From Gammaproteobacteria bacterium (lineage in GTDB: Bacteria > Pseudomonadota > Gammaproteobacteria > Pseudomonadales > Azotimanducaceae), in the NCBI GenBank assembly GCA_012269545.1, contig JAAXKB010000035.1:1-45811 (forward strand): a stretch of 45,811 nucleotides of DNA. Direction: 5' to 3'. Position numbers and translations under genes: made by a program. Positions 13,846 through 29,627 of the stretch are shown here, one piece after another (the first letter of the stretch is position 1; every line of letters begins with the position of its first letter). The notes under the pieces are model-generated. The model worked only from the letters and a program-made list of their open reading frames with translations. It ran no database searches and had not been told where the DNA came from.

Positions 13846-14898
13846 ATGCGGAGTGTGGTGGCGATAGGCCTGTTGAGTTTTCTGATTGCCGTATGGGCGC
13901 AAACGGGAAACGGCCGCGCAGAGCAAGCGCTGGCGGAAGCGGAATTGAACGAGCGCGGCAAGTTTTCAAATCCGATAGGCGACTTGGACAAGGGCGGCCT
14001 CGATGTGAGAGTGCCGTTTATGCTGCGCCGCCTCGGCACTTATTTCCGATCGAGTGAGGGCGCGCCAGAGCGGGTGCCAAACGATGGCAGCCTGCTGCGC
14101 GCCAACGCGACAGACACCACGCCAACGATCACCTGGGTCGGGCATTCGACCTTCGTCGTGCAGATTGGCGGCGTAACGTTTTTGACGGACCCAATCTGGT
14201 CGAACACGCCAAGCCCCGTGCCGGCTTTTGGTCCTCGCCGCTTTGTGCCGCCCGGTATCGCCATCGAAGATTTACCGACCATCGACTTTGTTACCATTTC
14301 TCATAATCACTACGATCACCTTGATTTGCCGACGCTGCGCACACTCGCAGCGCGTGACCCCAGTACAGTGTTTTTTGTCCCTGAGGGTAATGCGCGATTG
14401 CTGCGATCTGCTGGCATAAGCAACGTAACAGAGCTCAATTGGGGGCAACGTGTTGAACAGGGTGCTGTCACCGTACACTGCCTACCCACTCAGCATTGGA
14501 GCAAACGCAGCCTGACGGATACGAACGCATCTCTCTGGGCCTCCTGGGCTGTGATCGGCGCGGACCATCGTTTTTATCATGCAGGGGATACGGGTTACTT
14601 TCCGGGTTTTAAAGCGATCGGCAAACGTTTGGGACCCTTTGATCTGGCGGCTATTCCCATAGGAGCCTATCGGCCCCGGGCTATGATGAAGTCATCTCAC
14701 GTTAACCCCGAAGAGGCCGTCGCCGCTGCGCTCGATCTTCGCGCCGAGGCAGCGGTGGCCATGCATTTTGGTACCTTTGATTTGTCCGATGAAGCTCTGA
14801 ATGAGCCGCCAAAACGTTTTTTGCAGGCGGCAAAGGATCAAGGATTGGGGGAAGAAAACGCGTGGGTTCTCAAAATCGGCGAAACTCGCCAGTTTTAA
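13846..14898 (+). CDS. Exported metallo-beta-lactamase-fold hydrolase (NAPE-PLD/RomA-like)
   Basis: A 350-residue zinc hydrolase. An N-terminal hydrophobic signal (MRSVVAIGLLSFLIAVWAQT) suggests export. The MBL core is ITWVGHSTFVVQIGGVTFLTD (95-115), the metal motif H153-x-H155-x-D157-H158, then H217 (PTQHWSKR), D248 (HAGDTGYF) and H307 (MHFGTF). The WVGHST start and the PTQHWS element are typical of the NAPE-hydrolysing phospholipase D/RomA/UlaG-like branch, so a phospholipid or N-acyl amide substrate is possible. ATG at 13846 is chosen because GGAAGGA lies 7 bases upstream and the signal peptide begins there; the frame could extend to 13789. Confidence 0.85.
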   Translation: MRSVVAIGLLSFLIAVWAQTGNGRAEQALAEAELNERGKFSNPIGDLDKGGLDVRVPFMLRRLGTYFRSSEGAPERVPNDGSLLRANATDTTPTITWVGHSTFVVQIGGVTFLTDPIWSNTPSPVPAFGPRRFVPPGIAIEDLPTIDFVTISHNHYDHLDLPTLRTLAARDPSTVFFVPEGNARLLRSAGISNVTELNWGQRVEQGAVTVHCLPTQHWSKRSLTDTNASLWASWAVIGADHRFYHAGDTGYFPGFKAIGKRLGPFDLAAIPIGAYRPRAMMKSSHVNPEEAVAAALDLRAEAAVAMHFGTFDLSDEALNEPPKRFLQAAKDQGLGEENAWVLKIGETRQF

Positions 14899-15000
14899 GT
14901 TAACAGGGAAAACTTTAAAGAAAAAAGCCGTTAGTGCCGATTAAGTGAGCACACAGGAGGCTGTAAAAGCGCTCTGTATCGTCTTTCGTTTGGTGAGAAT

Positions 15001-15636
15001 GTGGTGTTACTGAAGATCGATCAATCGAATAAAGCAGTCCGCTGGTTGCTGCGCCTTAGCCTGCTGGTGTCCTGTGCATCGCAGCTGGGCTCCCCAACGG
15101 TGAGAGCCGAGGAGCTGCTTGAAGCGCAAGATGCGTTTGATCGCGGTGAATTTGTCACCGCCTTGAATCTGTTTGACGCGTTGGCCGAAGGTGGCGATGC
15201 ACAAGCCCAATACCAACTCGGCATGATGTACGAGCAGGGCTTAGGCACTGACCAAGACATCAGGATTGCCGCTCGCTGGTATACCCAAGCAGCTGAACAA
15301 CGCTCCCCCGAGGGTCTGACAGCGTTGAGTGCCTTGCATCTCAAGGGCGCTGGGGTGATCCAGAATTTCAAGGAGTCTCTGCGTTTAAACGAACAAGCGG
15401 CTGCCTTGGGCTACGCGCCGGCTCAATACAAATTGGGCGTAGCCTACGCTACCGGCGTCGGCACTTTCCGCGATCCGGTAAAAGCCCACATGTGGTTTAA
15501 CATTGCGTCCGCGAGCGGTTATCCCAATGCTATGGAGAGTCGCGAGCGTTTAGCGTCGGCTATGGCGGAAGCTGAAGTGACGCGTGCTCAAGCTCGCGCC
15601 AAAACATGCGTTGAGCGGAATTTCTCCAGCTGTTAA
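15001..15636 (+). CDS. Exported Sel1-repeat protein
   Basis: A 211-residue protein with a signal-like N-terminus (LLRLSLLVSCASQLGSPTVRA) and three Sel1-type helical repeats at about 66-101, 102-138 and 139-174 (AQYQLGMMYEQGLGTDQD; AQYKLGVAYATGVGTFRD). Such repeats bind peptides or proteins, often in the periplasm. The LVSC at residues 22-25 resembles a lipobox and could make it a lipoprotein, though A-S after the Cys and the later A-R-A site leave this open. Start GTG at 15001 or 15004; no ATG is available in frame upstream of the signal. The C-terminal tail carries two Cys (CVERNFSSC), a possible disulfide. Confidence 0.75.
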   Translation: MVLLKIDQSNKAVRWLLRLSLLVSCASQLGSPTVRAEELLEAQDAFDRGEFVTALNLFDALAEGGDAQAQYQLGMMYEQGLGTDQDIRIAARWYTQAAEQRSPEGLTALSALHLKGAGVIQNFKESLRLNEQAAALGYAPAQYKLGVAYATGVGTFRDPVKAHMWFNIASASGYPNAMESRERLASAMAEAEVTRAQARAKTCVERNFSSC

Positions 15637-15696
15637 CGCCAATCTGCTGCTTTAGGCTAGGATTTCTGCCACTGCAAATAAGATTGGAAGATGAGT

Positions 15697-16524
15697 ATGG
15701 GGGCGAAAACACATTCAGCATTGGTAACCGGAGGGGGAACTGGCATTGGTTTGGCCAGCGCCGAAAAATTTGCTGCTCAGGGTGCGGCGGTAGGTCTTTT
15801 AGGTCGTACTGAGGCCAAACTTGTGGCGGGCCGCGACGCCATTCTACGCCGTCACCCGGATGCTCACGTTTCGCTCTTTGTTGGTGATACCGCAGACGAG
15901 CAAACGGTGGCTGATTCGCTGATTCGAATGAACACGATTGCTCCGCTCAAAAAAGTGCTGGCCAATGCAGGTATCGGGGGACTGTCACCCATAGCCGCCC
16001 AAGATGCCGATCAATACGACGAGATCATGCGAATCAACGCCAAGGGCACGTTATTGGTTTTTAAACATGCCGCCAGAATCCTGTCGGCCAATGGCGGCGG
16101 GGCGCTCTGCGCGATTTCCAGTATCGCTGGTTTACGTACCCATCCGCATATGGCGGCCTACTGTATGAGCAAGGCGGCTATCGACATGTTGGTCCGAAAC
16201 TGCGCTGACGAACTTGGCGCTAGCGCGATCCGAGTGAATTCTGTTTGTCCCGGTTTGGTGGAAACTGAAATCGCAAGCGGCCTGCTTGGCACCGAATCGG
16301 TATATGAGGATTATTTGAAAAAGATGCCCATTGCCCGCCATGGACACGTCAACGATATTGCGGAGGCTGTTGCGTACCTGTGCAGTGACGCGGCAAATTG
16401 GATTACCGGGGTTAGTCTGCCTGTGGATGGTGGGCACCATCTGCGCCAGGGCCCTGACGTGTCGCCCTTCGCAAGGTCATTGTTCGGGGACAAAGCGGAA
16501 AGTCCGTCATCCTTCCTAGACTGA
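15697..16524 (+). CDS. SDR family oxidoreductase
   Basis: A 275-residue classical short-chain dehydrogenase. Motifs: TGGGTGIG (11-18) for NAD(P), ANAG (89-92), Ser in AISSIAG (about 139-145) and Y155-C-M-S-K159, with the family's VNSVCPGLVETEI segment and the C-terminal TGVSLPVDGG. It should interconvert a secondary alcohol and ketone. ATG at 15697 is preferred because GGAAG at 15686-15690 sits 6 bases before it; ATG at 15691 directly abuts that site. The flavin monooxygenase gene follows 110 bases downstream on the same strand: alcohol oxidation to a ketone followed by Baeyer-Villiger oxygenation is a plausible two-step route. Confidence 0.87.
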   Translation: MGAKTHSALVTGGGTGIGLASAEKFAAQGAAVGLLGRTEAKLVAGRDAILRRHPDAHVSLFVGDTADEQTVADSLIRMNTIAPLKKVLANAGIGGLSPIAAQDADQYDEIMRINAKGTLLVFKHAARILSANGGGALCAISSIAGLRTHPHMAAYCMSKAAIDMLVRNCADELGASAIRVNSVCPGLVETEIASGLLGTESVYEDYLKKMPIARHGHVNDIAEAVAYLCSDAANWITGVSLPVDGGHHLRQGPDVSPFARSLFGDKAESPSSFLD

Positions 16525-16634
16525 CATACGGCATGCCGATGAGAGGTCAGCGCCAACACTTTGTGTCATAATGCGCGGCTGCACTGGGGGCGAAAAAGAA
16601 CGCCCAAGGATTAGTTGTTTAGGACGTTTTTACT

Positions 16635-18200
16635 ATGTCGAATACCCACGAAGTGGTCATTGTAGGCGGTGGATTTTCAGGTCTGCTGTGTGGATATTTT
16701 CTCAAGGAAGCTGGCGTTGAGGATTTTTGTATTCTGGAAATGGGGGCTTCGCTAGGCGGGGTTTGGCAAAACGGTGGTGTCGGTGGTTATCCTGGCGCGG
16801 CCTGTGACGTGCCCTCCTATGCCTATCTGCCATTTCTTGACCGCATCGGGTTTATTCCCTCCAAAAAATACGTGAACCAGCAGGAAATTGCCGATTACAC
16901 GGATCAGTTGGTTGAATTTTGCGGGCTGCAGTCGCACATCCGTTTTTCAACCAAGGTGACCGGCGTTGAATACCTCAGTGAGGGGAATTGGCAGATTAAC
17001 ACCTTGGATATGCTCAGCGGCGAGGCTGGGTCTTCGTACAACGCGACCCACGTGGTCAGCGCCAACGGCCCGTTGTCTACTCCGCGTATGCCGGAAGTGG
17101 CTGGTATGGCGCGTTTCAAAGGTGAAAGCTTTCACACGGCCCAGTGGGACTATGGGGTTGACCTGAAAGGCAAAAACGTTGGCATCATAGGAACCGGCGC
17201 ATCTGCAGCCCAAGTGATTACCAGTATTGCGGATGAAGTCGAAACCCTGACCGTTTTCCAGCGCTCTGCAACTTGGGCCCTGCCTCGGGACGATGAACCA
17301 ACGCCCCCTGAAATCGTTGATGCATTCAAGAAAGGTGGCTACAGCGAGGGTCTTCGTTTTATCGATTGGGAAAACGGCCCCCAGCCGAATCCAGATCTGC
17401 CATTCACCTTTGATACCCTGCATGACGAGGAGGCTAATGCCAAACTGTGCGGCGCAATTGCGAAGCGCATCAAGGCCGAGGTGAACGACCCTGACTTAGC
17501 GCAGGTGCTGACGCCGGATTATCCGTTTTTCTGCAAGCGCGTGCTGTTCATCGATGACTACTACACCACGTTTAACAAACCGAACGTAACGCTGATCAAT
17601 GACTCGCAGGGTGTTGTGGGTATTACGGAAACCGGCGTGCAAATGGCCAGCGGCGACAGTCACGATGTAGACGTGCTGATTTACGCGACGGGATTCGATA
17701 GTAACCACATTCCATTTCCCGTTATCGGGCGCGATGGCGTGACGCTTGCTGACCAGTATGGGGCCAATGAGGCCAACAATTGGCAGATGACCCGCCCCCA
17801 GTCCCTGTGGGGCATTCATGTGGAGAACCTGCCGAATTTTTATCTGATGATCGGTCCCCAAAGCTTGAACCCGGTGACGAACGTAACTCTGCTGTGTGAA
17901 GAGCAGGGCAAGTACATAGCGGCCTTGGTCAGCCGTATGCGCGCTGCGAATGAAACGGAAGTCGAGCCCAAGGCTGAGGCGGTGGCAGCCTGGACGGAGC
18001 GCTGCAATGCCACTGCCGACGGCAAAGTCTGGCTGCGCTGTAACAATTGGTACATGAAGAGCACCAAGAGTGATGTGGAGGCAGGCCGCGAGCGTTCACA
18101 GGGTATGTGGATGGATACTTACGAAACCTACCTGCAGCACCTGCTGGGCGGCGCGGGTGGTTCGCAAGACAGTTTGCTGCGCTTCACAGGCAAGTCATAG
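16635..18200 (+). CDS. Flavin-containing monooxygenase, Baeyer-Villiger type
   Basis: A 521-residue FAD/NADPH monooxygenase. First Rossmann motif GGGFSG (11-16), then LGGVWQNGGVGGYPGAACDV (40-59) corresponding to the FAD-domain GGTWYWNRYPGA.CD stretch, the BVMO fingerprint F161-K-G-E-S-F-H167-T-A-Q-W171-D, and the NADPH Rossmann GTGASA (187-192). It would insert oxygen next to a ketone to give an ester or lactone. The second motif has N-G-G-V in place of Y-W-N-R, a local departure from the two longer paralogues at 35607 and 37653, and it lacks their 60-70-residue N-terminal extension. ATG at 16635 has an AGGA about 10 bases upstream. Confidence 0.87.
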   Translation: MSNTHEVVIVGGGFSGLLCGYFLKEAGVEDFCILEMGASLGGVWQNGGVGGYPGAACDVPSYAYLPFLDRIGFIPSKKYVNQQEIADYTDQLVEFCGLQSHIRFSTKVTGVEYLSEGNWQINTLDMLSGEAGSSYNATHVVSANGPLSTPRMPEVAGMARFKGESFHTAQWDYGVDLKGKNVGIIGTGASAAQVITSIADEVETLTVFQRSATWALPRDDEPTPPEIVDAFKKGGYSEGLRFIDWENGPQPNPDLPFTFDTLHDEEANAKLCGAIAKRIKAEVNDPDLAQVLTPDYPFFCKRVLFIDDYYTTFNKPNVTLINDSQGVVGITETGVQMASGDSHDVDVLIYATGFDSNHIPFPVIGRDGVTLADQYGANEANNWQMTRPQSLWGIHVENLPNFYLMIGPQSLNPVTNVTLLCEEQGKYIAALVSRMRAANETEVEPKAEAVAAWTERCNATADGKVWLRCNNWYMKSTKSDVEAGRERSQGMWMDTYETYLQHLLGGAGGSQDSLLRFTGKS

Positions 18201-18321
18201 CCGCCTGTGATCACGTCCCGTCGGCGCGGACAAGGCCGCGCCGCTGTTCCTTGATTTTAGTTGCCCGCTCGAGGGTTCTCGCACGCACTGTCTCGCGCCA
18301 TCACATGCTGCGTCTGATCTG

Positions 18322-19389
18322 TTAAAACGCCTTCTGTATGCCCAAGGTGAGTTGCCACTCCGGTGTCATTTGCACGCCGCGCGTATCCGTGTCCACGGGC
18401 AGTTCAAGCTCGATACCAAGACGTTCAGATTGACCGGGAAACAGCGAAACGACCGCATTGGCGCCCAGTCCAATACGCCACTTTTTATAGCCGTAGTTCG
18501 CCGGTATGGCTGTCTGCACTGGCGCCATAATCATGGCATCCATGCCTTCTAAGCCACTGGCTCGCGCGTAGCTCAGACGACCGGATAGCGACACACGGCG
18601 GTTCATCTCGCGCTGTACCCAAGCGGTGACCTGCTGGCTGTTTCCAAAGTGCCAATCCTTCGCCGCCACTTTAAATTTGCCGCTGATCTGACCACCGAAT
18701 ACCCACTTATTGCTGCTGTAAACATGGGTCAAGGCGGCATTTAAACGCAGGCTTTCATCACCAATCTGCATGCCATAGGGCAGCCGCATGGTCATGTTCA
18801 TTCCCATGGGGGTGAGGACGGTATCCGCTACGTTGGCATCCGCAATTGCCTGCTCTAGCCCCAAGGTTAGGTGCGTGCGGCTGCTAGCACCTTGCTGCAG
18901 TCGGAATAAGCCGCTCAGGGAAACGGACTGAATGTCATCGCTGGCGGTGGAGAATCCGCCTACCACGCTTCTAGGCCCTGAGTTCGTCATATCGGGCGGA
19001 GAATAGCTGGTCAGCGCCATATCTTTACTCGACGCCATGACCATGCCCATCAAGGTGAGCCGATCAGTGGGAGCGAACATGGCTCCTAGCATCAGCATGT
19101 CCATGTCCATGTCTTGCGGGACAACGCTCAGAACCCCAGGCATGCGACCCGGGGCGTTCGGCTGCATGATCACCTCGCTGTCACTGAGTTCGTCATCGCC
19201 TGCCTGATTTCCGGACATGTGCATACGCATCACTCTGGCGGATACCATCCACTCACCGGCTTTGTGGAAGTGATCTCCCATGACGCCAATGGGGCCGTGG
19301 TCTATGGCTCGCTCGCTATCTGCATTGGCATGGGTGGTGAGCAACAGGGCGCTTAAGCAAAGGCTCGCCCGGTAAAATAATGATTTCAT
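18322..19389 (-). CDS. Exported Met/His-rich beta-barrel-like protein, probably copper-related
   Basis: A 355-residue envelope protein with a clean signal peptide (MKSLFYRASLCLSALLLTTHANA). After it comes a Met/His-rich segment, MGDHFHKAGEWMVSARVMRM (37-56) and DMDMDMLMLG, then alternating-hydrophobic strands ending in LTLGIQKAF with a C-terminal Phe, typical of outer-membrane barrels. The MGDHxHxxGEWM signature marks a family usually annotated as transporter/outer-membrane phenol-degradation-like protein and often beside copper-resistance genes. A copper role is inferred from Met/His density and the DUF2946-like neighbour 100 bases upstream. ATG at 19389 follows GGAGA with five-base spacing; an ATG at 19401 is less likely because it precedes that site. 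Confidence 0.7.
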   Translation of the reverse strand: MKSLFYRASLCLSALLLTTHANADSERAIDHGPIGVMGDHFHKAGEWMVSARVMRMHMSGNQAGDDELSDSEVIMQPNAPGRMPGVLSVVPQDMDMDMLMLGAMFAPTDRLTLMGMVMASSKDMALTSYSPPDMTNSGPRSVVGGFSTASDDIQSVSLSGLFRLQQGASSRTHLTLGLEQAIADANVADTVLTPMGMNMTMRLPYGMQIGDESLRLNAALTHVYSSNKWVFGGQISGKFKVAAKDWHFGNSQQVTAWVQREMNRRVSLSGRLSYARASGLEGMDAMIMAPVQTAIPANYGYKKWRIGLGANAVVSLFPGQSERLGIELELPVDTDTRGVQMTPEWQLTLGIQKAF

Positions 19390-19489
19390 CGAAGTCTCCA
19401 AGTTTTTGCTGTTCAGCTGAACAAAATGACCAAGTCAACGCCTGCCCCTAGCACTGGGCCAGCGGTCAAGGAAAGGAATCAGTCTGGGT

Positions 19490-20053
19490 TTAATGCGCTG
19501 GAGAATGCGCCGGGGGAGCTCGCGTCGCGGGGCGAGGGAGGTGGTTTCGAGCGAAGGCTCGCGTGTATTGAGCGAACGTATGGAGGCTCAATGCTTCATC
19601 ATAAAGCGCACGTGCGGTCGGATAGGTATCTCCGGTTGCTGCAAGACCGTCGAGGCAAAACAGGCAGTGCGCTGGCAACGGTTGATTTGGCTGGACTCGC
19701 ACGCCGTGGCCCATTGTTGCTGCGTGTCGTTCGTGATGCTGCCTGATACTGGCGTCATTTACGCGGTGTTGATGCAGCTGATGGTGGTTTTGCTGGGAGG
19801 AATCCGCGCGACCGGCAGGCCCAGTGAACTCTCCTGATACCCCAAAGTAGGCGTTTCCCATACCCAGCAAGAACGCACCAAAAATCCACGCTGCCAAGGA
19901 CAGCGCGTACCCAATACGTTTTGGGGCAGGATGAAGCAATGTGGGAACTCGTCTCGGTGAACTGTTGCTCCATACTCTATCATGTACTAGCTTTCTTTTG
20001 CGGCGGGCCATTATGAAGCGAAGGTCGCTGTCATTTGATCTGCTGCCTGGCAT
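19490..20053 (-). CDS. DUF2946-like membrane-anchored protein
   Basis: A 187-residue protein with one hydrophobic segment (about 47-70), then a His-rich stretch QQNHHQLHQHRVN and RQHHERH (87-110) and H-C-L-F-C-L-D-G at 129-136, ending near TRAPPAHSPAH. A membrane helix, a His-rich loop, a C-x-x-C in a 'CPFC'-like context and a C-terminal 'R.PPA' are features of DUF2946, commonly found with copper-handling genes. The His and Cys residues could bind metal. It lies directly upstream of the Met/His-rich barrel gene on the same strand. The start is uncertain: ATG at 20053 gives a long basic leader, ATG at 20011 a shorter one; neither has a strong ribosome site. Confidence 0.6.
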   Translation of the reverse strand: MPGSRSNDSDLRFIMARRKRKLVHDRVWSNSSPRRVPTLLHPAPKRIGYALSLAAWIFGAFLLGMGNAYFGVSGEFTGPAGRADSSQQNHHQLHQHRVNDASIRQHHERHAATMGHGVRVQPNQPLPAHCLFCLDGLAATGDTYPTARALYDEALSLHTFAQYTRAFARNHLPRPATRAPPAHSPAH

Positions 20054-20127
20054 CGTATCTCACGAGCGCAGGTGTTCTGCATTTGTGGCGCAAAACCAAA
20101 GAATCGATCGGACATTAAAATACTGTT

Positions 20128-20916
20128 ATGAATGTACACCCGCTGAACACTGACTTTGTTTGGGCGCAACCTGAACCGCCTTATCAGCAAATCACTCAGG
20201 CTCAAGCCGACGCTTACCGGCACGAGGGCGGTTTCATACTGGAAAACGCTTTCACGCAAACTGAAATTTCCGACCTCGTTGAGGTTCTGGATCCGATGGA
20301 GGCGGAGGCAAACGCTCACATCGCCCGGATGTCCAGTGATCAGCCCAGCATTGCCAGAGCAGATGAAATCGTTTTTCGGCCTCATGCTGTTCTACAATCT
20401 CCTGCGGCGCAACATTTCGCCAAACACCGGGTTTTTGCAGCCTTGTGCCGGGATTTGATTGGTCCTCGGGCGCGTTTGTATTGGGATCAGTTGGTTTATA
20501 AACGCCCCGGCACCGCAGAAGAGTTTCCTTGGCATCAGGATAATGGCTACACCTTTGTGACGCCTCAGCAGTATCTAACTTGCTGGGTGGCGCTGAGCGA
20601 TGCGACACCTGAAAATGGCTGTCCTTGGATAGCGCCGGGCTTGCACAGCCGAGGCACCCTCGAGCATCGATGGACTGACCTTGGTTTTGAGTGTTTGACC
20701 GTCCCCCCACAGAATGCCCGGCCGATGCCCTTGGCGGCAGGTTCTATCGCGGTTTTTTCGAGCTTGACGCCTCACCGAACGGGGCCAAACCTGACCAGCC
20801 AAGTCCGCAAAGCCTACATCCTGCAATACGCGCCGGATGGGGCTGTCGTACATGAGCGAACAGGCGCCGTTCAGCCAGCCAATGCGCCTGACAGGCAGTT
20901 CTTTGTTGAAGAGTAA
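20128..20916 (+). CDS. Phytanoyl-CoA dioxygenase (PhyH) family protein
   Basis: A 262-residue Fe(II)/2-oxoglutarate dioxygenase. Ligands H136-Q-D138 (FPWHQDNGYTF) and H216 (SLTPHRTGPN), with R227 for 2-oxoglutarate; CWVALSDATPENGC (152-165) and the WIAPGLHSRG turn are the classical PhyH core. Of the four PhyH proteins in this window it is closest to the textbook pattern (WHQDNGY, T..NG). Substrate unknown. ATG at 20128. The selenoprotein gene follows 114 bases downstream on the same strand. Its start is 75 bases from the divergent DUF2946-like gene. Confidence 0.9.
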   Translation: MNVHPLNTDFVWAQPEPPYQQITQAQADAYRHEGGFILENAFTQTEISDLVEVLDPMEAEANAHIARMSSDQPSIARADEIVFRPHAVLQSPAAQHFAKHRVFAALCRDLIGPRARLYWDQLVYKRPGTAEEFPWHQDNGYTFVTPQQYLTCWVALSDATPENGCPWIAPGLHSRGTLEHRWTDLGFECLTVPPQNARPMPLAAGSIAVFSSLTPHRTGPNLTSQVRKAYILQYAPDGAVVHERTGAVQPANAPDRQFFVEE

Positions 20917-21030
20917 AAAGCAATCAGTGGTAATTTGCAGCAGTGGCCTGCGCGCAACCCGATGGGTTTTTGCCGAACTTGAGGGAAAGATGCAGGGGTA
21001 GACGAAGTGTTTGCTAAGTAAGGATGTGAA

Positions 21031-21591
21031 ATGGCCAGAATTAAATTGCTCCCAGATGACGAACTAACGGACGCAACGCGAGCTGCGGCACAGCATATGG
21101 ACGCTCAGGGGATGGACACCTCCACGCTGCGTGGTTTGGCGAATAGCCCAGAACTGTTCGAGGCTTACAATGCCTTTTACTTGCCGGCGCGCAAAGGATA
21201 CTCGGTGCCGGAAGAGCTGATTGAGTTGGTTCGACTGCGGATTGCCAGACACAACGACTGCTTTACGTGACTCAACGTCCGACTCCTGCAGTCTGCAGGA
21301 GACCTTACCGAGGAAAAAATCGCCCAGCTGGATTTGGACAGGCCGATGCTCGGCTTTACGCCTGAGGAGAGCATTGCACTGGAGTACGCTGATCGACTCG
21401 CTACTGATCATCACAACATGGACGATGCGTTCTTCGATCGGCTCAAAGAGCACTACAGTGATGCCCAAGTGCTCGAGCTTGGCATGATGATCGGACAATT
21501 TATTGGCTTTGGACGGCTGCTGGCGGTATTGGACTTGGAGTCCAAGTTTTGCCCAATCGATGACCCGCTTGAAAGCGGCGCATCTGACTGA
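21031..21591 (+). CDS. AhpD/carboxymuconolactone decarboxylase-like selenoprotein (CxxU)
   Basis: A 186-residue protein of the AhpD/CMD fold when the in-frame TGA at 21268-21270 is read as Sec. The first half ends ELVRLRIARHNDCFT and the second resumes LNVRLLQSAG in the same frame, so the conserved 'LR.A..N.C.YC' active-site helix is completed as C77-F-T-U80, with Sec replacing the second Cys of the CxxC pair. The C-terminal half (TPEESIALEYADRLA, then VLELGMMIGQFIGFGRLLAVL) is the normal second half of the family. A long perfect hairpin follows the TGA at SECIS distance. AhpD-like selenoproteins were reported from marine metagenomes. The His that often follows CxxC by four residues is Arg84 here. 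Peroxidase or disulfide-reductase activity is inferred. ATG at 21031 follows AGGA with six-base spacing. Confidence 0.9.
21281..21303 (+). promoter_or_regulatory. Putative bacterial SECIS element for the CxxU selenoprotein
   Basis: CTCCTGCA (21283-21290), loop GTC and TGCAGGAG (21294-21301) form a perfect eight-pair stem; an A·A mismatch and a G-C pair extend it. The loop begins with G-U, 21 bases after the Sec TGA, matching the known position and loop rule for SelB-bound SECIS hairpins. Confidence 0.85.
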
Positions 21592-21697
21592 CAACCCCAC
21601 TGATGCGGCGGGCTTAGCGAACGATCAGGACATTGTGGCTGACTGCACGAATCCTGCAGCGTCGATAAGGAAGCGAATGAGGAAGTAGGAGGCTTGT

Positions 21698-22090
21698 ATG
21701 ATTGGAGGAGGATGTTTGTGTGGTGCAGTTCGTTACTCCGTGAGCGGAGAACCGGTTGTTCAACTGTACTGTTACTGTACCGACTGCAGAAAAGTCAGCG
21801 GCACGGATGGCTACGCGGCCTATGTGGTTCATCGAGACGATTTGACACTAGAGCAGGGCGAGCCTGTGCGTTACAGCATCACAGCGAAATCAGGTCGAAC
21901 CAATACGCGAAATTTTTGCGGCAAATGCGGTAGCAGGCTTTGGGCTGACCTCGATACGGGGTTGGCCAGCGTTGCTGGCGGATCTCTGGACGATCCCGAC
22001 CTTTTTTCGCCCACCATGGTTCATTGCGAAAACGATGCGCCTAGCTGGGGCAGGGTGCCCGCGGCGCTTGCATCTTTGCCGGAAGACTAA
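21698..22090 (+). CDS. GFA/CENP-V domain zinc protein
   Basis: A 130-residue protein of the glutathione-dependent formaldehyde-activating (GFA) family. The zinc ligands are all present: C6-L-C8 (GGCLCGAVRY), C25-Y-C27 with C30 (YCYCTDCRK) and C74-G-K-C77 (FCGKCGSRLW). The name reflects the reaction of Gfa, joining formaldehyde to glutathione, but most members have no proven substrate. ATG at 21698 is reached after a GGAGG about 6 bases upstream. It lies 106 bases after the CxxU selenoprotein gene on the same strand; together with the YghU-like enzyme at 8.7 kb it hints at glutathione-linked detoxification. Confidence 0.85.
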   Translation: MIGGGCLCGAVRYSVSGEPVVQLYCYCTDCRKVSGTDGYAAYVVHRDDLTLEQGEPVRYSITAKSGRTNTRNFCGKCGSRLWADLDTGLASVAGGSLDDPDLFSPTMVHCENDAPSWGRVPAALASLPED

Positions 22091-22097
22091 CCCTAGT

Positions 22098-22211
22098 CTA
22101 GACGATCAAGGTCCAGCTGAAGGCATAGCAGGCGAATAAGATCGTGTAGCCACAGATCCACGCAATGGTGCGTATCCGTTTGACCCTCGATGCATAGTTC
22201 ACTCGCTTCAT
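22098..22211 (-). CDS. Tiny single-span membrane peptide, second gene of a Fur-box unit
   Basis: A 37-residue frame reading MKRVNYASRVKRIRT followed by a membrane helix (IAWICGYTILFACYAFSW) and a short tail. The basic N-terminus before the helix predicts the N-terminus inside. Its ATG overlaps the TGA of the preceding 49-residue frame (ATGA), a usual sign of translational coupling. No family is recognised. It would be transcribed from the Fur-box region 180 bases upstream. Being short, it could be a chance frame; the coupling and the well-formed helix are the reasons to keep it. Confidence 0.42.
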   Translation of the reverse strand: MKRVNYASRVKRIRTIAWICGYTILFACYAFSWTLIV

Positions 22212-22357
22212 GCCACGCCTGCGGTCAATTGGGGACGAATCATGCTGAGGTTGCGTGGCCCACGGGTCAATTCAGCGAGGTGATAGACCGCGCCTTGTGC
22301 GTTGCTCTCGGCCAACGGGGGTTGATGTGTCACGAAGACATGGGTGTGTGCGGACAT
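22208..22357 (-). CDS. Small ORF (49 aa) downstream of the Fur box
   Basis: An unrecognised 49-residue frame with ATG at 22357, 35 bases beyond the Fur box. AGGA precedes it at a short two-base spacing, which is not ideal. The sequence has several His near the N-terminus (MSAHTHVFVTHQ) and a basic C-terminal part. It overlaps the start of the 37-residue membrane peptide by ATGA. Support is positional: it is the only minus-strand frame placed to be controlled by the Fur box and coupled to the membrane peptide. Confidence 0.35.
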   Translation of the reverse strand: MSAHTHVFVTHQPPLAESNAQGAVYHLAELTRGPRNLSMIRPQLTAGVA

Positions 22358-22391
22358 TGTCCTGCTCGCGATGGCCTCATATCAATATAAA

Positions 22392-22406
22392 TGAGAATCA
22401 TTCTCA
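22392..22406. promoter_or_regulatory. Fur box (perfect 7-1-7 palindrome)
   Basis: TGAGAAT-C-ATTCTCA is a perfect 15-base inverted repeat matching the Fur consensus core (TGATAATNATTATCA-type) at nearly every position, in an A/T-rich context. It lies 106 bases before the exported-protein gene on the plus strand and 35 bases before the 49-residue frame on the minus strand, so it could repress either or both when iron is plentiful. Confidence 0.85.
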
Positions 22407-22512
22407 ATTAAAAAAAATCGTTTTGCAAGAAGAAACATCGTGTTTAAAGAGGCACAGTTACCGAGTTCCTGCAACAGGGCGCTAAAGAATAAAAAAACCA
22501 AAAGGAAGACTT

Positions 22513-23307
22513 ATGTTGAGAGTATTGACTGCGTGTATCGCGCTTTTATTGCCGCTATCAGGTTACGCGCACAATCACGCCGGCGAACCAACTGCCTTGC
22601 CAGAGAAAGCTATGGCTTTCGCTCAGATGGCGCCTTTGACCTATCAGCCCGGTAAGGGTCTGCAAGATTTGCAGGCTTGGGGAAAGAATTTTGGAAAGGT
22701 TGTTGAGAGCAATGGTACGCCGTATCGGATGACTACTTGGACACCTTTTTACTCGAATATGGCGGCCCTACCGGATATCGCCCAATTCGACACCATGTTC
22801 TTTGGGATCTGGCCAAGCATAGCCGACTTCGGAAGGGGCTGGGATGGTTTCTATGAAAATGGCGCTGAGGTACAGGCTGAATTGGACGAAATCGTTGTTC
22901 CAAGCAACCAGCGAACCATGGCCGTTTTGTATGCGTTATCGCCGAGCAAGGGGCAATTCGAGCCGAGCAACGGTCTTATTCGTATTTTAGGCTGTGAACT
23001 GGCAGACGGTAAAACCATCGACGATGCCTACTCGACTGGTGTGTCAGTAGCGCGCAAGGCAGATGAAGGAGACCTCGGGTTTAACGCGAGCTTCATGATG
23101 GTGCCCGGGCCGGGAGCGGCACCGAGCCAAGAAAATCATGTTTACCTTGTTGAGGTGTTCCGCAGCATTACAGATTACGGCGTTGGCTATGACAAAATGA
23201 CCCGCGATACGAGAAGAGCGATTCGGCAGATGGCCAACGGCGTGATGAGCTGTGATGCGCCGCGATTGTATTTGTCAAACGCTGTTTACTGGCCCATTAA
23301 CAACTAA
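22513..23307 (+). CDS. Exported hypothetical protein, probably iron-regulated
   Basis: A 264-residue protein with a clear signal peptide (MLRVLTACIALLLPLSGYAH) and a start of the mature part rich in His (HNHAGEP). No catalytic motif is recognised. It carries Trp/Tyr-rich segments (TTWTPFYSNM; FGIWPSIADFGRGWDGFYENG) and two Cys (near residues 158 and 249) that could form a disulfide in the periplasm. The perfect Fur box about 106 bases upstream suggests expression under iron limitation. ATG at 22513 follows AGGAAG (CAAAAGGAAGACTT) with ideal spacing. A hairpin at 23335-23359 follows the gene. Confidence 0.75.
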   Translation: MLRVLTACIALLLPLSGYAHNHAGEPTALPEKAMAFAQMAPLTYQPGKGLQDLQAWGKNFGKVVESNGTPYRMTTWTPFYSNMAALPDIAQFDTMFFGIWPSIADFGRGWDGFYENGAEVQAELDEIVVPSNQRTMAVLYALSPSKGQFEPSNGLIRILGCELADGKTIDDAYSTGVSVARKADEGDLGFNASFMMVPGPGAAPSQENHVYLVEVFRSITDYGVGYDKMTRDTRRAIRQMANGVMSCDAPRLYLSNAVYWPINN

Positions 23308-23334
23308 AGCTTGCTGCTGGCCAGCGTTTAACAT

Positions 23335-23359
23335 GCCGCCTTTCGCAAAAGAAGGCGGC
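23335..23359. terminator. Bidirectional terminator between convergent genes
   Basis: GCCGCCTT (23335-23342), a nine-base loop and AAGGCGGC (23352-23359) form a perfect eight-pair GC-rich stem. It sits between two convergent stops (23307 plus, 23460 minus), so it can end both transcripts. A short T-rich tail (TTCTCC) follows on the plus strand. Confidence 0.65.
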
Positions 23360-23459
23360 TTCTCCTACGTCGCTAATTGCGAGAAAAGGCTCCCTTTCCC
23401 TTGCTCAGACGGAACGGAGGCTTCGCCCGGTGCGGGGATATCTGTGACAAGCCCGGATG

Positions 23460-24251
23460 CTATCGCGACTTGTCAGTAATATGCCTAGCATAGGATCTAA
23501 CGGTTTCTTTGTACTCGTCTTCTGTCAGCGCCCATTGCTGCAGGTCGGCGTCGGCCCAGCCAAGGCTCATGCCCGCTGCCGAACGGCCGAGTGCGGACGT
23601 CATTGAGCGGGTCATCGCAAGTGCTGCAGCGGGTACGTCGAGGAGTTCTTTCAGCAACTCGCCCGTGAGCGCCTCTAAAGAATCATCAACGGCCACTCTT
23701 TGAGCCCAGCCACTTTGCTTCAGCTCATCAGCAAATACGTTTCGAGTCGTCATCACCCAGTCGCGTGCAGTAGGCAAGCCAACTTCGCGCGCTAACAGGG
23801 GCGTGCCATTCCAGACGTTGGGAATGCCGAGTGCCAATTCCGGAATTCGAAAGACAACGTTGTCAGAGATCACTCTGAAATCGCAGGCGGTTGCCAGCAG
23901 CGCGCCGCCACCAATAACGTGACCGCGCATGGAGGCAACCGTAACCTGTGGGATGCGCTCTAGCTGCTCCAACACCCTTTGCCAGGTAGCGGTGCGATTG
24001 CGGCGGGTTGACCAATCGCCTTCAACTTTTGGATAAGAGGTTGTTTTAAGGTCTGCTCCCGAGCAGAAGGACTTTCCCTCACCGGATATCACCAGCAGGC
24101 GGATATCCGGTCTTTCCATAAGTTCGTTGAGAGTGGTTGCGAAGACCCGGCGAATGTCATCGTTCAATGCGTTCAACTGTTTCGGGCGGTTTAGCACCAG
24201 ACGAACAAGTTGCTCCTCATACTCGACGGTTATGCCTTGGTCTGCGGACAT
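23460..24251 (-). CDS. Enoyl-CoA hydratase/isomerase family protein
   Basis: A 263-residue crotonase-fold protein acting on acyl-CoA thioesters. N-terminal LVRLVLNRPKQLNAL (15-29), the oxyanion-hole strands GEGKSFCSGADL (57-68) and GHVIGGGALLATACDFRV (110-127), and FRIPELALGIPN (134-145) are diagnostic. In the last motif the usual 'P-G-x-G-G-T' is replaced by P-N-V-W-N-G-T, and the second catalytic Glu position typical of hydratases is not evident, so isomerase, hydrolase or another crotonase activity is as likely as hydration. ATG at 24251. It is alone on its strand, divergent from the PhyH gene at 24577. Confidence 0.87.
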   Translation of the reverse strand: MSADQGITVEYEEQLVRLVLNRPKQLNALNDDIRRVFATTLNELMERPDIRLLVISGEGKSFCSGADLKTTSYPKVEGDWSTRRNRTATWQRVLEQLERIPQVTVASMRGHVIGGGALLATACDFRVISDNVVFRIPELALGIPNVWNGTPLLAREVGLPTARDWVMTTRNVFADELKQSGWAQRVAVDDSLEALTGELLKELLDVPAAALAMTRSMTSALGRSAAGMSLGWADADLQQWALTEDEYKETVRSYARHITDKSR

Positions 24252-24576
24252 GCTTGCGAAACTCCGGAATTGGTTGAATGTGTCTTAGCCGAGCCGAATA
24301 GTCTCATACCTGCTGCTCCCTGCTAAATCGGCAGTGAACTGGGCGAGGCACCGTCGCAGCGCTAATCGCACATCATGCAGCTAATACGAACCGATGTCTG
24401 GTGCGCTGAACAGCTTGTTCGCGCGAAGCTCAGAAAATCTGATCCATACGATGCTTCACGCAACGTAGGGTGTGATGCGTTAAAGGTCTTATTGCGGCAA
24501 CGGGCGCTTTTGCTAGCCACCTCAGGGGCTAGGCTCTAGACTGCAGAGATCAATACTTTCAGGGAATGGGACGCGC
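24252..24576. other. Intergenic region, 325 bp, divergent promoters expected
   Basis: This gap separates the start codons of the crotonase gene (minus) and the PhyH-aldo/keto reductase operon (plus), so both promoters should lie here. I see no coding frame, hairpin or recognisable operator. Confidence 0.5.
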
Positions 24577-25539
24577 ATGGGCTCTTTCTCACGCCCGCTA
24601 GGCTGGGCGACGAAACCTAAAGACGATCCTTCGGTGCAGGCGTTACGCAGCCATCTGCTTCAGCACAATGGCATCAAGGGGTTGGATGTGCTGAGCCCGA
24701 AAGATATTGAACGTGCGGTGGCACGATTTCGCCGTGACGGTTTCGTCGTGATAGCAGATGTCTTGAACAGCGAACAGACGGAATTTCTCGCAGCAGGATG
24801 TGACGAAGTTGCCGCAGAAATTGTTGCGCTAGATACGGAAAATAAAGGCAATCGCGGTACCCATCGCTATTCGTTCGGTGGCTCTAGTTTGACCCGCAGT
24901 CAATTGCACAGACCCGAATGGCAAATGTTGCTCGAGCTGCCGTTGGTTGATCAAATGGTAAGCGCCATTTTTGGCTCAGCAGACTATGCTCTGCGCGCCG
25001 CTAGCGGTGATTTTTGTTTGCCGGGCGCCATTTATTATCAACCGCTGCATTCAGACATTCGTGACTACGTTGACCCAAAACAAACGCCTTTTAGCGCTTT
25101 TATCGATCCCGTCAACACGATGTCCGTTCGAGACCTGCCTTGTCCCTATGTATGCGTAAACTTTCTTCCGCAGGAATTGACGACTCTAAATGGCCCGACT
25201 CGACAAATCCCCGGCACGCAAAATTCTCGCCAGCCGATTCCTGTCCTAGCGGAGGAACCGGAGTGGATGCGCCTGAGCACGGTATGCCCCGCACCGGCTG
25301 GCGGTATGATGATTCGAGATGTTCGCGCATGGCACGGCGGTACGCCGAACTTATCTGATGCAACGCGCTCCATACCCAATCTGGAGTTTTATGCACCGTG
25401 GTTTCGTGAACCCATGGTGCCGGGCATCAGTTACGAATCCTTCAAAAAAATGTCTCCCCGCGCACAACAGCTTGCACGCTTTTGCGTAGCCGACTCCAGC
25501 GCAGAGCTGGTAACCGGGCCTACCTTGCGTGCGCCATAA
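24577..25539 (+). CDS. Phytanoyl-CoA dioxygenase (PhyH)-like protein
   Basis: A 320-residue Fe(II)/2-oxoglutarate dioxygenase, the most divergent of the four PhyH-like proteins here. The ligands are H158-S-D160 (QPLHSDIRDY) and H253 (AWHGGTPN), with R264 for 2-oxoglutarate, and FRRDGFVVIADVL (51-63) is the usual N-terminal segment. LNGPTRQIPGTQNSRQ (204-219) is the strand-turn before the distal His. ATG at 24577. The aldo/keto reductase starts 21 bases after its stop, so the pair is probably an operon in which a hydroxylated product could be further oxidised or reduced. Confidence 0.85.
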   Translation: MGSFSRPLGWATKPKDDPSVQALRSHLLQHNGIKGLDVLSPKDIERAVARFRRDGFVVIADVLNSEQTEFLAAGCDEVAAEIVALDTENKGNRGTHRYSFGGSSLTRSQLHRPEWQMLLELPLVDQMVSAIFGSADYALRAASGDFCLPGAIYYQPLHSDIRDYVDPKQTPFSAFIDPVNTMSVRDLPCPYVCVNFLPQELTTLNGPTRQIPGTQNSRQPIPVLAEEPEWMRLSTVCPAPAGGMMIRDVRAWHGGTPNLSDATRSIPNLEFYAPWFREPMVPGISYESFKKMSPRAQQLARFCVADSSAELVTGPTLRAP

Positions 25540-25560
25540 ACACTTAACGAGAAAATCATC

Positions 25561-26523
25561 ATGCAATATCGTCAGCTGGGCCGTTCGGGTCTAAAAGTCA
25601 GCGAGCTGTGTTTGGGCACCATGAACTTTGGGTCCAGAACGTCGCCTCAAGCTGCGCAGGACATTTTGTCCGCTGCGATGGAGGCAGGCATCAACTTTAT
25701 CGACACCGCCAACCAATATGGCGGTGACAGTGGGGTGGGCACGACGGAAACGATTATTGGCCAGTGGTTAGCACAAGATCCAAACCGACGGCATAACGCT
25801 GTTATTGCGACTAAGGTGCACGAACCGATGTCCAATGGCATTAACGACCGCGGGCTGTCGGCCCGGCACATTCAAATGGCCTGCGAGGCCAGCCTAAAGC
25901 GCCTGCAGGTTGAGCACATTGATCTGTACCAAATGCACCACATTGATCGAACGACCCCTGTGGACGAGATCTGGCAGGCCATGGATCGTCTCTACCAACA
26001 GGGTAAAATCACCTATGTGGGCTCAAGCAACTTTCCGGGCTGGGCGATTGCTCAGGCTAACGAAAGAGCCCAATCGCAACAGCGCCTGGGTCTGGTATCT
26101 GAGCAGGGTCTGTATAACTTGCTGGAGCGCCGTGCAGAGCTCGAGGTGCTTCCCGCCTGTCGCGAATACGGGCTCGGGCTGATTCCCTGGAGCCCGCTAG
26201 CAGGCGGTTTGCTGGCGGCGGGTAGCGACGTATCGGGTAGACGCCAAGCACCAGCCATGCAGCAGGCAAGGCAAGCCAAGGCCGAACAGCTGCAAGCATT
26301 CCACAATTTATGTGACGATCTTCGCGAGGTGCCCAGCAATGTGGCGTTAGCGTGGCTTTTGCACCAGCCCGGTGTCACGGCGACCATTATCGGTCCGGGC
26401 ACCATTGAGCAGTTACAGGGCGTTTTAGAGGTGCCGCAACTCAGGCTAAGCCAAGAGACGCTGGACAAAATCGACGAGATTTTCCCGCCATGCGGCGCGG
26501 CACCAGAAGCCTACGCTTGGTAG
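25561..26523 (+). CDS. Aldo/keto reductase family oxidoreductase
   Basis: A 320-residue NADPH-dependent (beta/alpha)8-barrel reductase. The catalytic tetrad is D48, Y53, K85 and H126 (NFIDTANQYG; ATKVHE; QMHHID). The C-terminal NADPH-binding region ends IIGPGTIEQLQGVLEV. YdjG/YghZ-like enzymes of this shape reduce aldehydes and ketones. It is co-transcribed with the PhyH-like gene that ends 21 bases before it; the AAAATC leader has only a GAGAAA as ribosome site. Substrate unknown. Confidence 0.9.
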   Translation: MQYRQLGRSGLKVSELCLGTMNFGSRTSPQAAQDILSAAMEAGINFIDTANQYGGDSGVGTTETIIGQWLAQDPNRRHNAVIATKVHEPMSNGINDRGLSARHIQMACEASLKRLQVEHIDLYQMHHIDRTTPVDEIWQAMDRLYQQGKITYVGSSNFPGWAIAQANERAQSQQRLGLVSEQGLYNLLERRAELEVLPACREYGLGLIPWSPLAGGLLAAGSDVSGRRQAPAMQQARQAKAEQLQAFHNLCDDLREVPSNVALAWLLHQPGVTATIIGPGTIEQLQGVLEVPQLRLSQETLDKIDEIFPPCGAAPEAYAW

Positions 26524-26872
26524 TCGCATACGAGGTTTGTCAGGGGAGCAGCATGTCTGTGTTAACACGACAAGGCACGGCAAAGAACGCGCCGAAAATC
26601 ATCTCGAACGGCGGCAGCTCGTGGTCAGTAAGTTGCTCAAGCTCATCAAGCTGTTGCAAGAGCGCGTAGACGAATCGCAATGAATCGCCAGTGCAAGATC
26701 TTTGCAATGGGACCTATGATTCGATGACGCCGGTTGGTTTGTTCTCAGCAATCTTGGGGTGACGCTTTGCAGGACGTTGCCCTCACGCCGGCGTAAAGGA
26801 ATACCCTTTAGCGCGGCGAGGGTCGATGATGGACATCACTCAGCCGTGCGACCAGTCGGTGTATTGGAATGG
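26524..26872. other. Intergenic region, 349 bp
   Basis: This stretch lies between convergent genes. No gene with a start codon and ribosome site is convincing. One plus-strand frame (about 26620-26685) reads as an amphipathic helix, ERRQLVVSKLLKLIKLLQ, ending at TGA, without a good start; it may be a gene remnant. I see no clear terminator. Confidence 0.4.
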
Positions 26873-27268
26873 TTAGCCTGCCCCCGGTGAGCACACGCCC
26901 ATCTGTATCATCGTCTCGCCAACGCTCGGTTTAGAGGTCACTGAATAGCCCGCTCTGAAACCTAAGTTGCTGCCAACAGAGCTCAGTATAAACGTGCTTT
27001 CCTCGTTCTCGCCCTTGATCAAAAAGTCCTTAGCTGAAAGGGTCTGTCGGCAATCGTCGGTATTACACATAAACACCTGAGCGGCGTCCGGGAGCACCTT
27101 GATCGTTGAGTTTTCGACCTCGATCGTAAAGGCGACATCCGTTTCCTCTTGATCGATGTAATAGGGTGGGCCGAGGATCACGTCCCTGAGTTGTTTACAC
27201 TCCCAGCTTTCAGCCCAGCCTGCAGTCGTCGTCAGCAAGAAAAGAAAGCTTGCGATAATGTGCTTCAT
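26873..27268 (-). CDS. Small exported hypothetical protein
   Basis: A 131-residue protein with a signal peptide (MKHIIASFLFLLTTTAGWAES) and a beta-rich mature part containing four Cys: C near residue 24, C-N-T-D-D-C (68-73) and one near the C-terminus, which could form two periplasmic disulfides. No family is recognised. ATG at 27268 has AGGTCT about six bases upstream. It is alone on its strand; the RidA-like gene diverges 179 bases away. Confidence 0.65.
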   Translation of the reverse strand: MKHIIASFLFLLTTTAGWAESWECKQLRDVILGPPYYIDQEETDVAFTIEVENSTIKVLPDAAQVFMCNTDDCRQTLSAKDFLIKGENEESTFILSSVGSNLGFRAGYSVTSKPSVGETMIQMGVCSPGAG

Positions 27269-27447
27269 GTAAGACCTCTAAAGATTGACGCAAGATGCGT
27301 GTCGCAGGCGGCGGCTTGAAGGCGTCTGTGTTTTGCTTCGCAATGCCCCAGTGGCGGTTTTGCCGATTGCGCGTGAGGTATCTTGGCATAACGTCGACGA
27401 CTTGCAACAATTAGAAGAAGCAAAACAACCCAGACAGAGAGTCCAAA

Positions 27448-27822
27448 ATGTCCATCAGCGTTATCGTTCCAGAATCAGCCCAAGAAACCTACAGCTCGTG
27501 GCATTTTGCACCAGCCGTGCAACACGAAGACCTCATTTTTTTCTCCGGCGTTGTTGGCCAAGGCGAGTCTGCGGAGGAAGAATTCAGAAACGCATGGGCG
27601 TCTTTGGGCGAGACACTTACGGCAGCGGGTGTGGGTTACGAAGACATCATTGACACCACGATTTATATGGTAGAACTGCAAAAAAATGCCCGCGCCATGA
27701 GCAAGGCGAAAGACGAATTTATCAAAGAACCTTACCCAGCCTCCACGTGGATCGGTATCACCGAACTGGTCATTCCAGGAGCAAGAGCTGAGATCAAAGT
27801 TCTGGCGCGAAAACCGAGATAA
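27448..27822 (+). CDS. RidA-like (YjgF/Rid family) protein
   Basis: A 124-residue trimer-forming Rid-family protein. The fold is clear from DLIFFSGVVGQGESAEEEFRNAWASLGETL (28-57) and the YEDIIDTTIYMVEL segment. Archetypal RidA enzymes hydrolyse reactive enamines and need an Arg in 'P-A-R-x-T'; here the position reads Y-P-A-S-T-W, so the catalytic Arg is replaced by Ser and classical enamine deaminase activity is unlikely. Such Arg-less branches (Rid4-7) often sit in catabolic clusters with other roles. ATG at 27448 follows GAGAG. A short hairpin with a T-run follows the stop. Confidence 0.85.
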   Translation: MSISVIVPESAQETYSSWHFAPAVQHEDLIFFSGVVGQGESAEEEFRNAWASLGETLTAAGVGYEDIIDTTIYMVELQKNARAMSKAKDEFIKEPYPASTWIGITELVIPGARAEIKVLARKPR

Positions 27823-27823
27823 A

Positions 27824-27846
27824 GACCGATATCGGCCCAGTTTTTT
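27824..27846 (+). terminator. Possible terminator after the RidA-like gene
   Basis: Directly after the stop, a short dyad around CCGATATCGG is followed by CCCAG and six T residues. The stem is short and nearly loopless, so only the T-run and position support this. Confidence 0.35.
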
Positions 27847-29584: not shown

Positions 29585-29627
29585 GACACTCTCCTTTGGC
29601 GAGGGTTGGGGCAGGTTTCCATCGGCC

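What the first reader, a model, noticed from the sequence alone, without database searches (positions are those of the whole stretch)
21031..21591. AhpD/CMD-like protein split by TGA is a CxxU selenoprotein
Two in-frame halves of a carboxymuconolactone-decarboxylase-like protein are joined by a TGA exactly at the second Cys of the CxxC motif. An eight-pair hairpin starting 13 bases later, with loop G-U-C, fits a SECIS. An automated annotation would call two fragments or a pseudogene.
Basis: partly seen in the sequence, partly recalled or inferred. Interest (0 to 1): 0.85.

Follow-up and report, generated by a model that had tools for sequence, protein, structure and literature searches.

The report
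Selenocysteine-containing AhpD-like redox protein
A gene that looks broken by a stop codon is almost certainly intact and makes a small redox protein with the rare amino acid selenocysteine at its active site, a new branch of a kind of protein already known from ocean bacteria.

Summary
Window 21031-21591 reads as one 186-residue AhpD/CMD-fold protein interrupted only by TGA at codon 80 (21268-21270), the second position of a C-x-x-C motif. A perfect 8-bp hairpin with loop GUC follows 12 bases later. In 18 of 18 distinct orthologous loci the TGA is kept. Both halves are under purifying selection, and 6 of 8 hairpin pairs show compensatory change. The 10 best-scoring stop-free homologues in related genomes all have Cys in that column; over 50 stop-free homologues covering it, 31 have Cys and 19, from two distant groups, another residue. 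The genome carries selA, selB, tRNA-Sec and selD. The selenoprotein reading is strongly supported, though no protein evidence exists. CxxU AhpD/CMD selenoproteins have been known since the Sargasso Sea survey (2005). The window protein reaches no NCBIfam cut-off and has Arg where AhpD has its catalytic His, so it should not be called an AhpD. Its substrate is unknown. Verdict: real, well supported, a new member of a known kind.

The parts
21020..21024 (+). Shine-Dalgarno-like AAGGA, 6 nt before the start codon
   Evidence: read directly
21031..21591 (+). 186-codon gene of an AhpD/CMD-fold selenoprotein (read through TGA at codon 80; ends at TGA 21589-21591)
21259..21270 (+). redox motif C77-F-T-U80 (TGC TTT ACG TGA)
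21268..21270 (+). in-frame TGA, predicted selenocysteine codon; TGA in 18 of 18 orthologous loci
21283..21301 (+). predicted bacterial SECIS hairpin: 8-bp stem 21283-21290/21294-21301, loop GUC 21291-21293

Best explanation
The gene encodes a 186-residue selenoprotein with an AhpD/CMD (all-helical) fold. During translation SelB, carrying Sec-tRNA(Sec), binds the hairpin just downstream of the UGA and inserts selenocysteine at codon 80 instead of terminating (inferred from anatomy and covariation; the machinery genes are shown to be present). The product is most likely a thiol/selenol oxidoreductase in which Cys77 and Sec80 cycle through a selenenylsulfide, reducing a peroxide, disulfide or other oxidised small substrate (inferred from the CxxU motif and fold). 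It is a branch of its own within the AhpD-like proteins, with Arg84 in place of the AhpD catalytic His.
For: TGA in 18 of 18 orthologous loci, with purifying selection on both sides: mean pN/pS 0.315 before and 0.232 after the TGA over 136 pairs of 17 full-length genes. Hairpin: 92.4% of 144 cells paired, 6 of 8 pairs with compensatory changes, covariation score 0.382 against a shuffled mean of 0.175 (0 of 500 shuffles as high) and at most 0.131 when slid. First loop base and the fourth pair are invariant. In L021 and L022 the encoded LLQSAG becomes FPSAME, yet 8 pairs of other bases remain possible in the same columns. In the window 11 of 2000 synonymous recodings give as many pairs in this stem. 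Homologues: the 10 best-scoring stop-free matches have Cys at the column; in all, 31 of 50 stop-free homologues covering it. Own genome: tRNA-Sec 72.4 bits with anticodon loop CTTCAAA; SelA 518 and SelB 407 bits on the same contig; SelD 260 bits. Of 14 same-genus genomes with the gene, 13 have SelB over the cut-off and 11 tRNA-Sec. Outside the genus, G151, with two TGA forms, has SelB and tRNA-Sec, against 1 of 15 (SelB) and 2 of 15 (tRNA-Sec) genomes with no TGA at the column. Fold: AhpD-like structures from Foldseek E 1.1e-6 on a model of mean pLDDT 77.1.
Against: No protein or RNA evidence. 19 of 50 stop-free homologues have a residue other than Cys at the column; three of these keep the first Cys but have Glu at the second (G008:C12:80616, G003:C58:205181, G006:C87:2872). 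G010 has the TGA gene but no SelB or tRNA-Sec was found, and G003 and G027 lack a tRNA-Sec hit; these are draft genomes, and only 120 first-look candidates were scored in each for the tRNA. SelB is common in the genus anyway (29 of 40), so co-occurrence there says little. No Rfam family reached its gathering score in the window. Overall folding energy after the TGA is not exceptional against synonymous recodings (261 of 2000 as stable in the window; 1177 of 2000 in L015); only the pairing of this particular stem is. The outermost pair is unpaired in 9 of 18 and the next in 2 of 18; the best fold of L022 is not the plain 8-bp stem. The AhpD relay His is Arg in 18 of 18 and Tyr/His is Thr, so AhpD-type peroxidase activity is not assured. 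Residues 81-87 are low-confidence in the model.
Confidence: 0.94

Rival explanations
1. Pseudogene or sequencing error: the TGA is a real interruption of a decaying CMD gene or an assembly artefact.
For: Read by the standard code it is two shorter frames; other TGAs in the window also join two open stretches of at least 75 codons by chance (11 in all).
Against: The same TGA stands in 18 of 18 distinct loci with purifying selection on both sides and a covarying hairpin.
Confidence: 0.01
2. Two separate gene products: the TGA terminates and a second start makes the C-terminal half, or both halves are made as separate chains.
For: A TTG-started frame 21334-21591 exists in this register.
Against: The conserved protein continues directly across the TGA, L81-N82 following it in 18 of 18; the nearest stop-free homologues have Cys at that column; the conserved stretch right after the TGA lies before the 21334 start.
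Confidence: 0.02
3. UGA is read as another amino acid (for example Trp by suppression or a changed code) and not as Sec.
For: Read-through itself would be compatible with the open frame.
Against: The gene itself ends at TGA in 7 of 18 loci, so TGA also terminates; the residue at this column in stop-free homologues is Cys in 31 of 50 and Trp in none; Sec machinery and a SECIS-like hairpin are present.
Confidence: 0.01
4. The antisense frame 21064-21600 (178 aa) is the real gene.
For: It is an open frame of 178 codons, and L047 is as open on that strand (one stop).
Against: That frame holds two or more stops in 16 of 18 distinct loci, up to 14, whereas the sense frame has only the TGA and its terminator in all 18.
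Confidence: 0.01

Closest known systems
AhpD-like 1 (COG2128, CxxU) and AhpD-like 2 / CMD-domain (pfam02627, CxxU) selenoproteins of the Sargasso Sea and GOS surveys (PMC1088965, PMC2398784; passages seen)
   Same: CMD/AhpD relationship, Sec at the second position of CxxC, SECIS with a G-containing small apical loop; at least one record that carries an orthologue is marine by title (L042).
   Different: Their sequences could not be compared here. Whether this branch is among the 299 AhpD-like 1 or 70 AhpD-like 2 sequences they counted is not known.
NF053654 GroundWater_YciW, YciW-related (seleno)protein (NCBIfam)
   Same: Best family match of the window protein (E 4.4e-13), matched by 18 of 18 members at E up to 0.1; described as a (seleno)protein.
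   Different: 49.4 bits against a cut-off of 310 for the window protein: not that equivalog. Bit scores of the other 17 members were not shown.
TIGR01926 peroxidase-related enzyme (NCBIfam), the model listed for 'AhpD-like protein, CxxU' in PMC13188914 (passage seen)
   Same: Matched by 18 of 18 members at E up to 0.1, along residues 5-169 of the window protein.
   Different: 27 bits against a cut-off of 81.8 for the window protein.
PA0269 of Pseudomonas aeruginosa (2o4d, 2ijc), reported as a weak peroxidase of AhpD type
   Same: Best sequence match in the PDB (E 2.8e-9) and similar fold; relay residues Glu36, Cys48 and Cys51 correspond to Glu65, Cys77 and Sec80.
   Different: His55 is Arg84 and Tyr50 is Thr79 here (alignment; relay residues from PMC3141380, passages seen).
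Debrominase Bmp8 (6ohi, 6ohj)
   Same: Similar fold (Foldseek E 4.1e-4 for 6ohj_A).
   Different: Weak sequence match covering only residues 108-173 (E 0.48); which Cys corresponds was not established.

Membership tests
Bacterial selenoproteins | In-frame UGA conserved in orthologues | tested here: met
   18 of 18 distinct loci
Bacterial selenoproteins | Cys in the UGA column of non-Sec homologues | tested here: met
   The 10 best-scoring stop-free matches all have Cys; in all 31 of 50 that cover the column, the 19 others in two distant groups
Bacterial selenoproteins | SECIS: hairpin just downstream of the UGA with G in a small apical loop (as described in PMC1088965) | tested here: met
   8-bp stem, first loop base G in 18 of 18, covariation in 6 of 8 pairs
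Bacterial selenoproteins | Sec machinery (SelA, SelB, tRNA-Sec, SelD) in the same genome | tested here: met
Bacterial selenoproteins | Selenium or Sec found in the protein | not testable with these tools
   needs 75Se labelling or mass spectrometry
AhpD/CMD superfamily (fold) | AhpD-like helical fold and CMD sequence signature | tested here: met
   PDB match E 2.8e-9, Foldseek E 1.1e-6; but Pfam CMD at 16.8 bits is below the curated cut-off of 23
AhpD-type alkylhydroperoxidase | Catalytic Cys-X-X-Cys followed by the invariant His four residues on (proton relay Glu/Cys/Cys/His) | tested here: not met
   Glu65, Cys77 and Sec80 present, but His is Arg84 in 18 of 18 (relay definition from PMC3141380)
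NF053654 GroundWater_YciW | score over the curated cut-off of 310 | tested here: not met
   49.4 bits for the window protein
TIGR01926 peroxidase-related | score over the curated cut-off of 81.8 | tested here: not met
   27 bits for the window protein
GOS/Sargasso AhpD-like 1 (COG2128) | belongs to that sequence cluster | not testable with these tools
   those sequences and the COG library are not held here

The most novel reading that the evidence does not exclude
Because the AhpD relay His is replaced by Arg and the fold includes the debrominase Bmp8, the protein might be a selenol-based reductive dehalogenase, or another non-peroxide reductase of organic substrates: a bacterial AhpD-fold counterpart of the selenium-dependent deiodinases. 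This would fit neighbourhoods with catabolic-looking genes (PhyH, TauD, flavin monooxygenase, Rieske and luciferase-like oxygenases). The comparison with deiodinase is recalled; a search of the paper library for it listed nothing.
Probability: 0.06. Interest if true: 0.7.

Novelty: new member of a known kind. Interest (0 to 1): 0.35.

Why it matters
It describes a coherent branch of AhpD-like selenoproteins (14 of the 37 same-genus genomes, plus 4 further MAG loci) whose window member reaches no NCBIfam cut-off. The wider family also offers Sec/Cys pairs in sister lineages (L057 Sec against L058 Cys) for asking what selenium buys this fold. Practically, a gene finder that does not read TGA as Sec would split or drop the gene (inference; no annotation was looked at).

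Tried and rejected
Viral contigs: 161 stretches matched a pattern, none confirmed as a relative. Rfam on the window: nothing over any gathering score. Conserved neighbourhood as a clue to function: with frames of 90 residues or more and E up to 1e-8 against window 13001-30000, only L039 (the same contig as L010) of 10 loci shares the surrounding genes; besides the gene itself (and its antisense shadow in L046 and L047), the other nine gave only a homology in L043 (TauD type, with its own antisense shadow) and one in L046 (flavin monooxygenase type), to window genes that are not adjacent. Adjacent genes differ from locus to locus, so context gives no specific function. Antisense frame: rejected. 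Overall folding energy as proof of a SECIS: weak, so the argument rests on stem pairing and covariation. Arg84 as a peculiarity of the Sec form: rejected, since Cys relatives such as L023, L024, L030, L035-L038 and L058 also have Arg.

Tree: 45 rows; L020 was left out as partial, L048 as a duplicate, and the further matches read (all but L068's) were not added. The 17 orthologues form one group (99/95); the Sec label needs 5 changes (at least 3 forced by starred branches), so Sec and Cys have probably interchanged more than once in the wider family. Long branches make the deeper order unsure.

Rows dropped or corrected: one search read several minus-strand loci in the wrong orientation (corrected). 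The L063 row used wrong coordinates and is ignored (re-read). L075 (G006:C88) is an N-terminal piece at a contig end with TGA at codon 80, probably the other end of L020, and was not counted as a locus. I also found that machinery had been sought in only 7 of 15 genomes outside the genus with no TGA at the column; searches added the other 8, which brought in G039 (SelB and tRNA-Sec) and G042 (tRNA-Sec only, 49.9 bits) as Cys-form genomes with machinery hits.

Full report
What is there. Window 21031-21591 (+) is a single 186-codon frame interrupted only by TGA at codon 80, 21268-21270, with AAGGA 6 nt before the ATG. The product has the motif C77-F-T-U80. A perfect 8-bp hairpin (21283-21301, loop GUC) starts 12 nt after the TGA. 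Of the 11 TGAs in the window that join two in-frame open stretches of at least 75 codons, only this one is followed by such a hairpin; of the 1509 TGA triplets examined, 4 have a Watson-Crick hairpin of that kind and 37 have one with G-U allowed.

What protein it is. The read-through product matches Pfam CMD weakly (16.8 bits, cut-off 23). In the PDB it matches AhpD-like PA0269 (E 2.8e-9). A predicted model (mean pLDDT 77.1, pTM 0.71) matches AhpD-core peroxidase-related structures (Foldseek E 1.1e-6 for 2prr_D). The window protein reaches no NCBIfam cut-off; the nearest models, NF053654 and TIGR01926, match 18 of 18 orthologues at E up to 0.1, the bit scores of the other 17 not being shown.

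Orthologues. A search of 58 genomes gave a TGA-bearing orthologue in 14 of 37 same-genus genomes, the window's included (55% identity or more over nearly the whole protein, or 75% over residues 52-180 in G006, where it is cut by a contig end). A scan of GTDB contigs gave 10 loci, of which 6 are the same contigs by length and 4 are new. In all 18 distinct loci codon 80 is TGA. Mean pN/pS is 0.315 before and 0.232 after it over 136 pairs of the 17 full-length genes. The gene's own terminator is TGA in 7 of 18, TAG in 7 and TAA in 4. The antisense frame in codon register has two or more stops in 16 of 18.

The hairpin. Aligned without gaps, 92.4% of 144 cells are paired and 6 of 8 pairs show changes on both sides. 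The covariation score is 0.382 against a shuffled mean of 0.175 (0 of 500 as high), and 0.131 at most when the partner is slid by 1-3 columns. One further measure, the number of pair types, does not exceed the shuffles (7 against a mean of 6.9). The first loop base is G in 18 of 18. In L021 and L022 the amino acids coded by the stem differ (FPSAME against LLQSAG), yet the same columns form 8 pairs with other bases. Among 2000 synonymous recodings of the window stretch, 11 have as many pairs in this stem; the corresponding numbers in the other 17 run from 12 to 151. Overall folding energy is unremarkable in that control (261 of 2000 as stable in the window, up to 1177 in L015), which is a limit of the structural evidence.

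Residue at the TGA column elsewhere. Besides the orthologues, searches listed 63 matches (52 and 11). Read at the column, 31 have Cys, 12 have TGA (one of them the N-terminal piece of the G006 orthologue), 16 have Glu, one each Asp, Phe and Ala, and one does not cover it. So of 50 stop-free homologues covering the column 31 have Cys. The 10 best-scoring stop-free matches (E 3.2e-17 or better) are all Cys. The 19 others are 10 of one distant type (with GYEWGQH) and 9 that are, or resemble, the partner genes beside a second TGA-bearing family; three of the 19 keep the first Cys of the motif. L057 and L067 of G151, from another family of the class, have TGA, and L058 of G272, in the same family as G151, is a Cys form. 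The TGA that one search flagged in G053:C7 is near the end of the match and not at this column, where it has Cys.

Machinery. The window genome has tRNA-Sec at 72.4 bits (loop read), SelA (518 bits) and SelB (407 bits) on the same contig and SelD (260 bits, in a 742-residue frame). Of the 14 same-genus genomes with the gene, 13 have SelB over its cut-off and 11 have tRNA-Sec over its cut-off. G010 has neither, and G003 and G027 lack only the tRNA hit; only 120 first-look candidates were scored per genome for the tRNA. SelB is common in the genus anyway (29 of 40), so co-occurrence inside it says little. Outside the genus, 16 genomes have a match: G151 (TGA forms) has SelB and tRNA-Sec, and of the 15 with no TGA at the column 1 has SelB over the cut-off (G039) and 2 have tRNA-Sec (G039, and G042 at 49.9 bits against 47). 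A Cys form in a Sec-using genome does not conflict with the reading.

How it works. Shown: frame, conservation, hairpin, machinery genes, Cys equivalence in the nearest homologues. Inferred: SelB reads the hairpin and UGA is decoded as Sec; Cys77 and Sec80 form the redox pair. By the alignment and the relay residues of PA0269 (PMC3141380, passages seen), Glu36, Cys48 and Cys51 correspond to Glu65, Cys77 and Sec80, but Tyr50 to Thr79 and the invariant His55 to Arg84. Arg84 is invariant in 18 of 18 and also found in several Cys relatives, so it is a trait of this wider branch and not of Sec use. I would therefore call it a selenol oxidoreductase with an AhpD fold, not an AhpD. Its substrate is open; neighbourhoods vary, with catabolic-looking genes in several.

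What is known. AhpD-like (COG2128) and CMD-domain selenoproteins with CxxU were reported from the Sargasso Sea (PMC1088965, passages; 27 and 4 sequences) and GOS (PMC2398784, passages; AhpD-like 1 and 2, 299 and 70 sequences), AhpD-like (COG2128) also in PMC1794560 (passages), and they are tabulated in reviews (PMC9312934, PMC13188914, passages). Paper searches (listings only) showed no work on this particular branch by title or abstract start, but those surveys may have counted it. Hence: new member of a known kind.

Tree. In a tree of 45 rows the 17 full-length orthologues form one group (99/95) and the Sec label needs 5 changes, at least 3 of them forced, so Sec and Cys have probably interchanged more than once in this family.

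Noticed in passing
L068:577-1707 (G027), and matching places in G010, G008, G006, G003, G031, G019, G028 and G015 (L069-L074, L083, L025/L078): A second family of TGA-bearing CMD-type genes (CGYU or CNYU, TGA at the same column in 9 genomes). In 7 of the 9 one search also lists a neighbouring CMD paralogue without TGA, with Glu (6) or Phe (1) at the column; in L068 a rhodanese-like frame follows (rhodanese by eye, no call). Not found in the window genome by the search.
   Followed up: partly
L057 and L067 (G151): Two TGA-containing members of the wider family in one genome of another family of the class, on the same contig, with CFLU and CGLU motifs.
   Followed up: partly
L054 (G000:C34:734-1639): SelD match lies in a 742-residue open frame, which might be one of the Ndh-SelD fusions described in PMC2398784 (passage seen); the fusion partner was not checked.
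   Followed up: no
window 9612-13086, 20128-20916, 24577-25539: Four PhyH (phytanoyl-CoA dioxygenase) family genes within about 16 kb, plus a TauD-type dioxygenase at 28136-29164 and three MFS_2 transporters in the window: an apparently catabolic region.
   Followed up: no
window 1957-3294: A 445-residue frame whose only Pfam match at E up to 1e-5 is part of the photolyase FAD-binding domain (residues 96-223).
   Followed up: no
window 21064-21600 (-): A 178-codon antisense open frame over the selenoprotein gene; broken in 16 of 18 loci by two or more stops.
   Followed up: yes
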